Origin: a virus
Length of the DNA stretch: 64,000 nucleotides
IMG/VR virus record: IMGVR_UViG_3300010401_000033
Span: 62,001-126,000 of that record
Direction: 5' to 3' (one strand)
Each line of letters opens with the position of its first letter. Within the stretch, counting starts at the first letter, position 1. This document shows positions 45,398 through 49,381 of this stretch, piece after piece. The position numbers were made by a program, and so were the translations under genes. A model generated the notes under the pieces. That model worked only from the letters and a program-made list of their open reading frames with translations. It was not told the origin of the DNA and searched no databases.

Positions 45398-45838
45398 CTA
45401 ACAGAATGGATGATCCTTTTCTGTCACGATCTGGAACTCCCAGCCCTGGTCCTTACAAAACTTCTCAGCGGCCTCCCACTTCGCACGGTTCACCGCATAG
45501 GTTGCCACTTCGGTGAGATAGCGTTGGGTCTTTTTGGCAGGTACCCTGAGTTGCGTCTCCGCGTAGGGTTTAACCTCAATGAGGTAAGTGGTCACCTTTC
45601 CCTGCTTATCCTTGACTTTGATTGTGAAGTCTGGAAAATAACGATGAATTTCTCCATCTACTGGAGAACAATAGGGAATCGCAAGTCCCTCTGAATTCCA
45701 GAGTATAACGGATTCTGTGGTGTCAAACTTAATCATGAGTTGTCGCTCCCACCCTGAGCGATAAACAATCTCCCCTGCATTGCCAGCATATTTCTTTGGA
45801 TTGGTGGGAGTAAACCAGCCTTGGTGATATTTTCTCAT
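45398..45838 (-). CDS. 4: Head completion nuclease-like protein gp4
   Basis: 146 aa (T4 gp4 is 150 aa). A PD-(D/E)xK-type core is visible: E31 in YRSGWERQLM, D70 in HRYFPDF, and E88-V-K90 in YLIEVKP. The block IPYCSPVDGEIHRYFPDF is the family signature. The protein acts in head completion before tail joining; whether it cuts DNA in vivo is not settled. It is the leftmost-reading gene of the divergent late-promoter pair. Confidence 0.93.
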   Translation of the reverse strand: MRKYHQGWFTPTNPKKYAGNAGEIVYRSGWERQLMIKFDTTESVILWNSEGLAIPYCSPVDGEIHRYFPDFTIKVKDKQGKVTTYLIEVKPYAETQLRVPAKKTQRYLTEVATYAVNRAKWEAAEKFCKDQGWEFQIVTEKDHPFC

Positions 45839-45898: not shown

Positions 45899-46561
45899 AT
45901 GTCAGGGGTATACACTGAATTTTTCGCACATCTGAATAAACTTGGGGTGGCAAAAACCTCCCATTTCAGGTTCTCACTCCCTGTGGGTATCAAAGGAACT
46001 CGGTTTTCCGACATAGTGGGAAATGATAAGATTTTTGGACTCCGTTGCGAAGCCACAGAACTCCCAGGGCGTCAATTGGTGTCAAACGACTCACGCACCT
46101 ATGGTCCAACCTACAAGACACCGTACCAGTCACTCTATCAAGAATTCACCGTGAATTTCCTTGAAACCTCAGATTTTTTTGTGCGTGGATTTTTTGAAAC
46201 CTGGATGAATCAGATTTTCAATTCAAGCACCAATCTCTTAGAGTACCCGGACAATTATCGTTTTGACACCACATTGACACAGTACGATGTCATGCTTAAG
46301 GATGAAAAAGACCCCGCGTCATCTCTCAGACAGGTTGCCGTCTGGACATTATTTAATACCTGGCCCACGGCCGTGAACCAGATGCCCGTGTCCTGGACAG
46401 AGGATGGATTGCATCGTACAACGGTCACCCTGGCATTTGAATGGTACTCGCTGTCAACCGCTGTAGAACCCTTACCGAAGGGCGCAGCACAGACCAAATC
46501 CGCAACAGTTCCACCAAAAGGTAGCAGTGGAGGATTTTTCGGTTCCCTTAATCCCTTTTAA
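45899..46561 (+). CDS. 54: Tail-tube-like baseplate protein (gp54-like tube initiator)
   Basis: 220 aa. The central pattern GLRCEATELPGRQLVSNDSRTYGP...F..NFLETSDFFVRGFFETWMNQIF matches the tube fold and parallels the gp19 pattern (KTASMPG...FGRE...NDEDFAVRNAFEAWMN) in this same window, so the two are distant paralogues. T4 gp54 (320 aa) is the tube-like ring on which gp19 polymerises. The C-terminus ends in a Gly/Ser/Phe tail. ATG at 45899 follows AAAGGAACCGT. It could also be another tube-like hub ring. Confidence 0.7.
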   Translation: MSGVYTEFFAHLNKLGVAKTSHFRFSLPVGIKGTRFSDIVGNDKIFGLRCEATELPGRQLVSNDSRTYGPTYKTPYQSLYQEFTVNFLETSDFFVRGFFETWMNQIFNSSTNLLEYPDNYRFDTTLTQYDVMLKDEKDPASSLRQVAVWTLFNTWPTAVNQMPVSWTEDGLHRTTVTLAFEWYSLSTAVEPLPKGAAQTKSATVPPKGSSGGFFGSLNPF

Positions 46562-46572
46562 CAATGGAGTGA

Positions 46573-47322
46573 ATGATTATGTCTTTGCCTAAACTGGATG
46601 TCCCGTATTATGAAGTGGTGTGCCCATCAGGTCTGAAAGTGTCGTTTCGCCCGTTCCTGGTGAGAGAAGAGAAGTTACTCATGATTGCTTTGCAGTCCAA
46701 TGAGTCTACTACAATTCTCCAAGCCGCCAAACAAATCCTTGAGAATTGTGTGGGGAAAGTCTCAAACATTGACATTGATAAATTGCCCTTATTTGATGTG
46801 GAATTTTTGTTCCTCAACCTTCGCGCCCGAAGCATTGGTGAAGAACTTGCTCTCAAGTATAAGTGCAATCAGCAAGTGTTGGACGCAAACACAGGAAACA
46901 CAGTGGTCTGTAATGCGGTGTCAGAATACCCAGTTGACCTTCTGAGCATTAAGCCAACCTTCGCCGAGGGACACAACAAATACATACAACTCACGGATGA
47001 AGTCGGTGTGACATTACGTTACCCAACATTTAAGTCCTTCCGAAGCATCGCTCGAAAGGATTTGCCTGCTGAGGATGCTTTTGCGTTTTTGGTAGAATGT
47101 ATTGAGTCAATCAACAACTCACAAGAGATAGTCATGACGAAGGATGTGCCAGCATCGGAGGTTGCCGAGTTCGTTGATGACCTTAGCAAAAAGCAAGTAG
47201 ATAAAATGGATGCCTTCTTTGACACAATGCCAAAGATTGAAAAGGTGATTCAATTCAAATGTCCAAAGTGTAGGTATGAAGAGGAAATCAAGGTCAAGGG
47301 GCTAGACAATTTTTTCGTCTAA
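46573..47322 (+). CDS. 26: Baseplate hub assembly protein gp26-like / tail chaperone
   Basis: 249 aa in the zero frame. The N-terminal PSGLKVSFRPFLVREEKLLMIALQS and LNLRARSIGEELALKYKC blocks are those of the T4 gp26-type baseplate protein family. A C-terminal CxxC pair (FKCPKCRYEE) follows KVIQ. GGAG lies three bases before ATG 46573 and nine before the in-frame ATG at 46579, so the latter may be the true start. The gene ends in a run of six T with the heptamer T TTT TTC at 47310-47316, two codons before the stop. A -1 shift there would join it to the gp51-like frame. Confidence 0.88.
   Translation: MIMSLPKLDVPYYEVVCPSGLKVSFRPFLVREEKLLMIALQSNESTTILQAAKQILENCVGKVSNIDIDKLPLFDVEFLFLNLRARSIGEELALKYKCNQQVLDANTGNTVVCNAVSEYPVDLLSIKPTFAEGHNKYIQLTDEVGVTLRYPTFKSFRSIARKDLPAEDAFAFLVECIESINNSQEIVMTKDVPASEVAEFVDDLSKKQVDKMDAFFDTMPKIEKVIQFKCPKCRYEEEIKVKGLDNFFV
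47310..47316 (+). promoter_or_regulatory. Predicted -1 ribosomal frameshift site (T TTT TTC)
   Basis: The zero-frame codons are AAT TTT TTC GTC TAA, so the X-XXY-YYZ heptamer U-UUU-UUC is correctly phased two codons before the stop. After slippage the ribosome reads CGT CTA ATC and continues 66 codons to TAA at 47514-47516. The -1 frame is closed upstream by TGA at 47277 and has no ATG or GTG before the conserved part begins. Related heptamers act in tail-assembly chaperone pairs of other phages. Confidence 0.7.
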
Positions 47323-47516
47323 TCCTGTCCCATGATAATTTGGCGAACTTCTACACCACACAGTTCGCTTTGGTTCAGGATCACAAATTCCCGCTCTCAG
47401 AACTGGAGAACTTGCTCCCCTGGGAACGTTTGATCTATTTGAGCCTAGTGACCCAGCGAGTTGAAAAAGAGAACGCACGAATCAAAGAACTCAACGCACA
47501 AAGGAATAAGCGATAA
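47316..47516 (+). CDS. 51: gp51-like C-terminal extension, made by -1 frameshift
   Basis: Open -1 frame of 66 codons after the slippery site. The product contains NLANFYTTQFALVQDHKF and LSELENLLPWERLIYLSL, then a charged coiled-coil tail (RVEKENARIKELNAQRNKR). This resembles the hub-assembly catalyst/tail chaperone associated with gp26 in T4-like environmental phages. It has no plausible start codon of its own, so it is read here as the tail of a 314-aa gp26-gp51 fusion. Its TAA overlaps the ATG of the tape-measure gene (TAATG). A non-ATG start (CTG/TTG) cannot be fully excluded. Confidence 0.75.
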   Translation, partial: RLILSHDNLANFYTTQFALVQDHKFPLSELENLLPWERLIYLSLVTQRVEKENARIKELNAQRNKR

Positions 47517-49381
47517 TGGCTGAGGACAATATCCCTGATACACTGAAAGATTTGACCGACCAATTCAAGGAAATGCACGAAAGCCTTGACAAGTTGGCAG
47601 AGAGTCAAAAGCCTGTGGTGGAAGAGGCGAAGGTTCAACTCGCCCGTACCCGCCGACCTGCTCATGCACCGACCCAGGCACCAAAGGTGGAATTTGGAAA
47701 AGAGACGCGCAAAGATATTCTCGCGGCTCTCAAGGGGATTCGTCAACAGATCGTTGTCTCTCAGCGCAAGGAAAACACCGCAGCCGACGTGGCAGCCGAG
47801 CACCTGGCTGCTGGTGGGGGACTCGCAGGAGCCGCAGGTGAAGCCATCGCGTTCAAAGCGGGGAAGTTCAAAGCCGCATTCAAGCGTAAGTTTGACCCAC
47901 TCAACATTGTCAATCGTATCAGCGGTGGATCAAAACTTGCGACTGCGCTTGCTGGCAGACTCATGGGTCGTTCAGAAAAATCTATTCGCGCTGCCTCTGG
48001 ATTGGGTGGTGGACTTCCTGGAATGGAAATGCAGGATCAGTATAATCCATCTCCGTACACCCAACAGGACAATGCACCTTCTGCCGTCTCCTCTGAAAAA
48101 GCCACAGGGTTGTTGGAACAGATTTCCTCCACCATGTCTGCTATGTTAGACCAAATGACGGAATTGAATGCCTCCATTTCCAAGATAGAAGATTACTCAA
48201 AGGAAACCACTAAGTTTGCGGAGGATCAAGTCAAGAGTACCGACCAATTAAAGGATGCAGAGGCAGCCGAACGGGTAAAGAAACAACAACCATCGCAAGT
48301 CCGTACTGCCATCGCTCCAACCACGAAAAAAGAAGAAGCGGGTGGTGGGCTCTTTGGTTCCTTCATGAAGGAACTATTTACACCACAGGGTCTTGCCATT
48401 GCCGCCGCGGTTACAGGTATTGTGGCAGCAATCTATTCGGTGGTGAAAAATTGGGAGGCACTCAAGGATGCAGTAGCGGATATCTACGAGTCCATCAAGT
48501 CTGGATTTATGGCAGTGAAGGATTGGATCGCCAATAAAATCACTGGGGCTCTTGACTCGGCACTTGACACGGTGGATAGTGTCGTTGATAGTATCAAGGA
48601 TATTGGTAACTCCATCAATCCATTTGCGGAGAAGGTCACCCCTGAACAGCGAGCCAAGGAGAAACACACTAGACGAGTCCAGGCGGCCGCCGCGGGCTCG
48701 GGTCATGCTCAACGCGCATTGGAAAAGGAAGTTCGTTCATCAGAAGATTCCAGTGAGGTACTCAAGAAACTTGCCCCAAACTACATCAGCAAAATTCCAA
48801 ATGAGAACAGGGACGCATCGGTCGCCTCACTACGCAGTGGAGAATTAGTTGATTCTGCGATGAAGTCTCTGAAAGGTGAGGAACCGCCGAAGGGAACACC
48901 AGCACAAGTCTCAACTACGAATGCACTCACACAGATGGTGGGGAAAGCCTACGGAGAACTCTATAAGGATGCTCAGGGTAATGCTCTACGCCCATCACAG
49001 GACAAAAATGTTGAGGCACGGCTACCTTCACTCATGCAATCTGCGTCACAGGCGCTGGCGGAAGCGACGACTCCACAGGGTTCCCCTGCTCGGACCTCTT
49101 CGGTAATTGGTGCACCAATGATGGCACCAGTACCCTCCGCCCCAATGATGCTACCTCCACCTCCCCCTCAGACTGGCCAACTCCTGAACCAGTCGGCGGA
49201 GAATCAGAGGAATGCCGCCGCCAGCGGAGCGGGAACAAATAATGTGGTCGCCCCAGTCATCAATCAAAATAAAACGGTAAACAACACGTCACAAACCACC
49301 ATCCATCAGAATATGCCCCCTGCCCGTAGCGGGGAATCCAGTTTTCTACGCTCTCAGGATGGTAGTTTCGCCCGTGCCTAA
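47516..49381 (+). CDS. Putative tail tape measure protein (gp29 position)
   Basis: 621 aa (T4 gp29 is 590 aa). It has an N-terminal charged helical part (1-95), an Ala/Gly-rich basic region (95-165), coiled-coil-like helices (195-255) and a hydrophobic segment at ~291-311 (QGLAIAAAVTGIVAAIYSVV). An amphipathic region up to ~370 and a long Pro/Gln/Asn-rich C-terminal tail follow. This architecture and the position directly after a frameshifting chaperone pair fit a tape measure that sets tail length and later inserts in the host membrane. Sequence identity to T4 gp29 is not evident by eye. Confidence 0.65.
   Translation: MAEDNIPDTLKDLTDQFKEMHESLDKLAESQKPVVEEAKVQLARTRRPAHAPTQAPKVEFGKETRKDILAALKGIRQQIVVSQRKENTAADVAAEHLAAGGGLAGAAGEAIAFKAGKFKAAFKRKFDPLNIVNRISGGSKLATALAGRLMGRSEKSIRAASGLGGGLPGMEMQDQYNPSPYTQQDNAPSAVSSEKATGLLEQISSTMSAMLDQMTELNASISKIEDYSKETTKFAEDQVKSTDQLKDAEAAERVKKQQPSQVRTAIAPTTKKEEAGGGLFGSFMKELFTPQGLAIAAAVTGIVAAIYSVVKNWEALKDAVADIYESIKSGFMAVKDWIANKITGALDSALDTVDSVVDSIKDIGNSINPFAEKVTPEQRAKEKHTRRVQAAAAGSGHAQRALEKEVRSSEDSSEVLKKLAPNYISKIPNENRDASVASLRSGELVDSAMKSLKGEEPPKGTPAQVSTTNALTQMVGKAYGELYKDAQGNALRPSQDKNVEARLPSLMQSASQALAEATTPQGSPARTSSVIGAPMMAPVPSAPMMLPPPPPQTGQLLNQSAENQRNAAASGAGTNNVVAPVINQNKTVNNTSQTTIHQNMPPARSGESSFLRSQDGSFARA

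What the first reader, a model, noticed from the sequence alone, without database searches (positions are those of the whole stretch)
47277..47516. Predicted -1 frameshift fuses gp26 to gp51 just before the tape measure
The heptamer T TTT TTC (47310-47316) is in the correct X-XXY-YYZ phase two codons before the gp26 stop. The -1 frame continues 66 codons with a conserved-looking gp51-like sequence, is closed upstream by TGA at 47277, and has no ATG/GTG before the conserved part. Frameshifted chaperone pairs directly upstream of the tape measure are known from lambda (G/GT) and P2-like phages. This suggests the same arrangement in a T4-type phage and that gp26/gp51 act as tail chaperones rather than hub parts.
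Basis: partly seen in the sequence, partly recalled or inferred. Interest (0 to 1): 0.8.

Follow-up and report, generated by a model that had tools for sequence, protein, structure and literature searches.

The report
Ribosomal frameshift fusing gp26 and gp51
This T4-like virus almost certainly makes two versions of a tail-building helper protein from one gene by having some ribosomes slip back one base; relatives of many kinds do the same, and coliphage T4 itself carries the longer version as a separate gene.

Summary
Confirmed. In the window, gp26 (46573-47322, PF12322) ends with an in-phase T TTT TTC (47310-47316) one codon before its TAA. The -1 frame runs on for 66 codons as a gp51 homologue (phrog_634, 2.5e-22) with no ATG or GTG before the conserved part, and stops where the tape-measure-like gene starts. 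It is the only one of 106 long ORFs in the window with such a site near its stop. Of 153 related loci, 149 have T TTT TTN in phase near the gp26 stop, nearly all continuing into the same gp51 domain in the -1 frame. Two further -1 frameshift elements appear at family level: an SD-like GAGGG about 9-10 nt upstream (GAG for Glu 65/95, expected about 26) and a peak of RNA structure just downstream that survives protein-preserving shuffles. T4 gp51 aligns end to end with the predicted fusion, T4 gp26 only with the short form: T4, 44RR and an Acinetobacter phage hard-wire the long form and T4 lacks the slip site. Mechanism and chaperone role match published tail assembly chaperones. Two citing papers indicate that poly-T slip sites in T4-like phages were reported in 2022 (Virology 566:9), which I could not read. 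The window phage is a well-supported new member of a known kind.

The parts
46573..47322 (+). gp26, short form (TAC-N like), 249 aa
   Evidence: PF12322 T4_baseplate 1.1e-53; phrog_150 8.9e-63; AlphaFold pLDDT 87.7
47296..47301 (+). SD-like AAGGGG, 8 nt before the heptamer, candidate upstream stimulator
   Evidence: sequence; family-level codon bias towards GAGGG at this place
47310..47316 (+). slippery heptamer T TTT TTC
   Evidence: in phase; 149 of 153 related loci have T TTT TTN here
47320..47322 (+). gp26 stop codon TAA, 3 nt after the heptamer
   Evidence: a 3-nt spacing in 115 of 138 loci
47316..47516 (+). gp51 part read in the -1 frame (the frame is open from 47280)
   Evidence: phrog_634 2.5e-22 and C-terminal part of phrog_150 2.1e-6; A5 model 5.0e-31 in own genome
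46573..47516 (+). predicted frameshift fusion, join(46573..47316, 47316..47516), 314 aa
   Evidence: T4 gp51 aligns with the fusion profile through the junction
47322..47381 (+). predicted downstream stem-loop, outer stem 47322-47327/47376-47381, inner stem 47342-47349/47362-47369
   Evidence: MFE -18.4, z -2.86; weak support in the clade, one compensatory pair; z about -1.6 under a codon-preserving control
47516..49381 (+). tape-measure-like protein, 621 aa; its ATG overlaps the gp51 TAA
   Evidence: phrog tail length tape measure families, best 7e-8
45899..46561 (+). tail-tube family protein immediately upstream of gp26
   Evidence: phrog_45 tail tube 4.5e-30

Best explanation
The locus is a tail assembly chaperone gene with programmed -1 ribosomal frameshifting. 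Most ribosomes read gp26 and stop at TAA 47320 (short form). A minority pause at U UUU UUC, helped by an SD-like sequence upstream and a stem-loop downstream, slip back one base and continue into the gp51 frame, giving a 314-aa gp26-gp51 fusion. By analogy with lambda gpG/gpGT, the shared N-terminal part would coat the tape measure protein and the gp51 tail of the long form would recruit the tail tube protein; both leave before the tail is finished. Shown here: the sequence elements, their conservation, -1 coding, and homology of the fusion to T4 gp51. Inferred: that slippage happens, its rate, and the chaperone function.
For: In-phase heptamer at the gp26 3' end in 149 of 153 loci. The -1 frame runs 53-75 codons into one conserved domain, FFR..L.H..L.NYY..NFALMQHHKYSLTELENMIPWER, with its third codon position the most variable (0.41/0.26/0.59). 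In a dereplicated set of 136, 73 loci have no ATG, GTG or TTG in the -1 frame before the conserved block and 90 have no ATG; where an ATG follows the slip its SD position is mostly filled by the T run. GAG and GGG/GGA are enriched at the Glu-Gly codons 9-14 nt upstream: GAG 65/95 against about 26 expected from each gene's own usage. RNA structure peaks just downstream: mean z -1.31+-0.14 with dinucleotide shuffles and -1.27+-0.12 with protein-preserving shuffles, decaying to near 0. T4 gp51 residues 15-245 align with fusion profile 23-283 straight through the junction, while T4 gp26 aligns only to the slip site. The 14 frameshift-type or Ackermannviridae-type phage records searched, plus the window's own record, have one gp26 domain each; T4-type phages have short and long genes separately. 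T4 gp26 lacks the slip site (GAGTTCTTTGAG). U_UUU_UUC is among the efficient -1 motifs in E. coli (PMC4066793). HK97 tail assembly chaperone 2ob9 and YqbN appear in the PDB fold search; 2ob9 has the highest probability in the printed list (0.66-0.75), though E is about 0.5.
Against: No experiment shows slippage or the fusion protein. About a third of relatives have an in-frame ATG near the slip, so free gp51 cannot be excluded there. Ackermannviridae relatives have the -1 extension but no T6. Synechococcus phage S-SCSM1 has an insertion of about 11 nt that breaks the -1 frame. Covariation of the window's stem is weak. The fold match to known chaperones is not significant by E-value. Some T4 genetics placed gp26 in the hub (PMC3004832).
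Confidence: 0.88

Rival explanations
1. gp51 is made as a separate protein by termination-reinitiation or by a non-AUG start just after the gp26 stop.
For: 46 of 136 dereplicated relatives have at least one in-frame ATG between the -1 frame's upstream stop and slip+30, most often 15 nt after the start of the slip (27 loci), and public records annotate gp51 from such codons. In the window a TTG lies at 47340.
Against: 73 of 136 have no ATG, GTG or TTG there; SD sequences are missing; residues FFR.. before any start are conserved; the T6 phase, SD-like site and structure are placed for slippage; T4 gp51 is a fusion.
Confidence: 0.06
2. The fusion arises by transcriptional slippage of RNA polymerase on the T run, not by the ribosome.
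For: A T6-T7 homopolymer; poly-U tracts can cause transcript indels.
Against: Mostly only six T (seventh base C in 100 of 138), in the X XXY YYZ phase, with upstream SD-like and downstream elements at ribosomal spacing.
Confidence: 0.03
3. A chance overlap or sequencing error in a decayed gene.
For: Overlapping ORFs are common in phages.
Against: The same anatomy in 149 of 153 loci from independent assemblies and named phages.
Confidence: 0.01
4. The frameshift is real but gp26 and the fusion are hub components, not tape measure chaperones.
For: PHROG and GenBank names 'baseplate hub'; some T4 genetics place gp26 in the hub (PMC3004832).
Against: The T4 tail review lists gp26 and gp51 as hub assembly chaperones and gp51 as absent from the particle; position directly before the tape measure; short/long pair anatomy; weak fold match to the HK97 chaperone; the Konradin record names both 'tape measure protein assembly chaperone'.
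Confidence: 0.08

Closest known systems
T4-like phage tail assembly chaperones gp26/gp51 (Vladimirov, Gautam and Davidson 2022, Virology 566:9-15; known here only through PMC10885494 and PMC12846349)
   Same: Homologous short and long proteins; the same N-terminal and C-terminal parts; poly-T slip sites in T4-like TAC-N genes are cited to that paper.
   Different: T4, 44RR and Acinetobacter phage Konradin encode short and long forms as separate, divergently transcribed genes; the window and most relatives use one gene with a -1 shift.
Lambda gpG/gpGT tail assembly chaperones
   Same: Small gene directly before the tape measure, -1 shift near its 3' end, low-level C-terminal extension (PMC5009743).
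   Different: No sequence homology known to me or tested here; a different slip site; larger N-terminal domain (249 aa); slip site one codon from the stop.
Vandenendeviridae/Andersonviridae chaperone locus (phage Adele, PMC12846349)
   Same: Predicted -1 frameshift at a poly-T motif at the 3' end of TAC-N, before the tape measure.
   Different: Conserved motif GTTTTT rather than T TTT TTC; a different phage lineage; homology not tested here.
E. coli dnaX -1 frameshift (general knowledge)
   Same: SD-like sequence upstream, slippery heptamer, stem-loop downstream.
   Different: A AAA AAG slip site; the shift truncates rather than extends the product.

Membership tests
Programmed -1 ribosomal frameshift | X XXY YYZ heptamer in the zero-frame phase | tested here: met
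   T TTT TTC 47310-47316; 149 of 153 loci
Programmed -1 ribosomal frameshift | Conserved coding in the -1 frame beyond the zero-frame stop, not explained by its own start | tested here: met
   own start excluded in about half of the loci, the window included apart from an unconserved TTG
Programmed -1 ribosomal frameshift | Stimulatory elements (SD-like upstream, structure downstream) | tested here: met
   family level; for the window alone only moderate
Programmed -1 ribosomal frameshift | Measured slippage and fusion product | not testable with these tools
   needs a reporter assay or mass spectrometry
Tail assembly chaperones (TAC) | Short/long pair encoded just upstream of the tape measure gene | tested here: met
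   tail-tube family gene upstream, tape-measure-like gene overlapping downstream
Tail assembly chaperones (TAC) | TAC fold of the N-terminal domain | tested here: inconclusive
   Foldseek to HK97 gp13 2ob9: probability 0.66-0.75, E about 0.5, partial
Tail assembly chaperones (TAC) | Binds tape measure and tail tube proteins; absent from the virion | not testable with these tools
   needs biochemistry; T4 gp51 is described as absent from the particle (PMC3004832)
T4 gp26/gp51 family | Homology of both parts to T4 gp26 and gp51 | tested here: met
   PF12322 1.1e-53; T4 gp26 5e-27 and T4 gp51 1.5e-11 to the fusion profile in a small set; C-terminal model to T4 genome 7.6e-6

The most novel reading that the evidence does not exclude
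The gp26/gp51 frameshift is widespread, and perhaps ancestral, in the T4-like superfamily. It has a conserved three-part signal (SD-like GAGGG, U UUU UUN, downstream stem-loop) that I found no description of in the papers available here. In the T4/44RR/Acinetobacter phage lineage it was replaced by gene duplication, with one copy losing the slip site and the other hard-wired as gp51.
Probability: 0.55. Interest if true: 0.5.

Novelty: new member of a known kind. Interest (0 to 1): 0.42.

Why it matters
It explains why gp51 is mis-annotated or missing in T4-like phage records, and gives T4-like phages (T4 is named in a 2016 review as the exception among long-tailed phages, PMC5009743) the same short/long chaperone logic as lambda. 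It also offers a clear natural comparison between making two products by frameshift and by gene duplication, and a broad comparative set for how stimulatory elements accompany a slip site.

Tried and rejected
Start at TTG 47340: no SD and not conserved. Transcriptional slippage: short T run in fixed phase. Rfam match for the region: none. Direct sequence match of gp26 to solved structures: none meaningful. Fold search of the C-terminal part alone: nothing. Pfam on the C-terminal part: only weak hits unlikely to mean anything. A first codon-bias test used wrong offsets and was redone (then 59). Root and direction of change on the tree are not settled (midpoint root, weak deep support). The 2022 Virology paper was not held.

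Full report
What is there. The window is part of a 134.9-kb IMG/VR virus record with a T4-like tail module: gp53-, gp48-, gp2- and gp4-like genes on the minus strand, then on the plus strand a tail-tube family gene (45899-46561), gp26 (46573-47322), the -1 frame gp51 part, and a 621-aa tape-measure-like gene (47516-49381). The gp26 frame reads AAT TTT TTC GTC TAA, so T TTT TTC (47310-47316) has the phase needed for simultaneous -1 slippage, one codon before the stop. The -1 frame is closed upstream by TGA 47277 and open to TAA 47514-47516, where the tape-measure ATG overlaps. Of 106 ORFs of 100 aa or more in the window, only gp26 has such a site near its stop.

Is the -1 frame a gene? Its translation matches phrog_634, 'baseplate hub assembly catalyst' (2.5e-22), and also the C-terminal positions 227-278 of phrog_150, the gp26 family (2.1e-6), which suggests that some database gp26 entries are already fused or extended. 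I collected relatives from IMG/VR, from GTDB genomes and from named phages. Of 153 loci analysed, 149 have T TTT TTN in phase close to the gp26 stop. In nearly all of these the -1 frame continues more than 40 codons past the gp26 stop (145 in the first, narrower count, plus two loci whose site lies further upstream; two others run off their contig). The consensus is FFR..L.H..L.NYY.TNFALMQHHKYSLTELENMIPWER.IYV..L. Codon positions in the -1 frame differ between loci by 0.41, 0.26 and 0.59, as expected for a coding frame; the other frames hold 760 and 820 stops over the same stretch (zero stops in the -1 frame is by construction). The three Ackermannviridae-like loci lack the T6 but still have the extension in the -1 frame; L137 has GTTTTTT.

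Frameshift or separate start? In the dereplicated set of 136, 90 have no ATG, and 73 no ATG, GTG or TTG, between the upstream -1 stop and 30 nt after the slip start. Where an ATG follows the slip site, the place for an SD is mostly filled by the T run. Two further elements point to slippage. At the Glu-Gly codons 9-14 nt upstream, GAG is used in 65 of 95 (about 26 expected from each gene's own usage; Fisher 6e-17, overstated because loci are related) and GGG/GGA are enriched; elsewhere in the same genes Glu-Gly is mostly GAA GGN. This is an SD-like GAGGG at a distance like that known from dnaX (own knowledge); the window has AAGGGG. Second, 55-nt folding windows show a peak just downstream of the slip, mean z -1.31+-0.14, against about -0.5 to +0.3 in windows farther away; with protein-preserving codon shuffles it is -1.27+-0.12 and fades by about 58 nt. 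The window's own stem-loop is moderate (z -2.86 and about -1.6 in the two controls) and covariation in its clade is weak. U_UUU_UUC is a good -1 motif in E. coli (PMC4066793).

A natural fusion. A profile of the 138 predicted fusions was compared with T4 proteins. T4 gp26 aligns to positions 11-239, ending at the slip site; T4 gp51 aligns to positions 23-283, passing through the junction without a break. 44RR and Acinetobacter phage Konradin show the same for gp51 (44RR gp26 matches only weakly). In these phages gp26 and gp51 are separate genes on opposite strands, and T4 gp26 ends GAG TTC TTT GAG TTA CTA TAA without a slip site and without a gp51 extension. The other phage records searched, and the window's own record, have a single gp26 domain (VS1 is matched in two pieces of one gene). 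So the predicted product exists in hard-wired form in T4. Straboviridae contain both arrangements: the Schizotequatrovirus VS1 and the Angelvirus AsFcp_1 have the slip site. Which state is older is not settled by the tree.

Function. T4 gp26 and gp51 are listed as hub assembly chaperones, and gp51 is absent from the particle, though some genetics placed gp26 in the hub (PMC3004832). A record for phage Konradin names both 'tape measure protein assembly chaperone'. The AlphaFold model of gp26 (pLDDT 87.7) matches no solved structure significantly; the HK97 tail assembly chaperone 2ob9 has the highest Foldseek probability printed (0.66-0.75, E about 0.5). The model ends in a helix made by GLDNFF, and the separately modelled extension starts with a helix from FFRLIL, compatible with a continuous helix across the junction. 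By analogy with lambda gpG/gpGT (PMC5009743) I infer that gp26 coats the tape measure and the gp51 part recruits tail tube protein.

What is known. A 2016 review called T4 the exception to conserved G-T frameshifting (PMC5009743). [quoted passage not shown] it is not held. PRFect says, citing it, that some T4-like phages carry a short gene and a fused long gene instead of a frameshift, and the phage Adele paper cites it for poly-T -1 signals in TAC-N genes of T4-like phages. I therefore rate the window as a new member of a known kind. The SD-like bias and the structure peak are, as far as I could search, additional.

Exceptions. Ackermannviridae relatives have ATTTTC, GTTTTC or similar instead of T6. 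Cyanophage S-SCSM1 keeps TTTTTTC but has an insertion of about 11 nt that moves gp51 to the other frame (reachable by -2 or +1, or from an ATG); its relatives S-B05 and SynMITS9220M01 are normal.

Noticed in passing
L164 1475-1520 (Synechococcus phage S-SCSM1): The slip site is kept but an insertion of about 11 nt breaks the -1 frame; gp51 is open in the -2/+1 frame from the slip, or from an ATG. It could be a frame-type switch, independent initiation or a sequence error.
   Followed up: partly
L019, L021, L027, L160-L162 (Ackermannviridae and Vibrio phage K446): The gp51-like extension lies in the -1 frame at the gp26 end but without T6 (ATTTTC, GTTTTC, CTTTTC); the shift mechanism there is unclear.
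   Followed up: partly
L165 (Vibrio phage 2.275.O, 349-kb record): A very distant PF12322 protein also ends in TTTTTTC with a long -1 frame, which suggests an even wider spread.
   Followed up: no
L001, L016, L027 and other named records: gp51 is annotated from an internal ATG, as 'hypothetical protein', or not at all; a joined CDS would correct many records.
   Followed up: partly
L110-L159: T4-like phage contigs sit in MAGs of many bacteria and archaea (for example Euryarchaeota, Nitrosarchaeum, a 4.9-Mb Heimdallarchaeota chromosome, L154, with a partial gp26 match); probably mis-binned, not checked.
   Followed up: no
window 45398-45838, minus strand: The gp4-like head closure protein scores 8e-25 with the TnsA-like endonuclease N-terminal domain family.
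   Followed up: no
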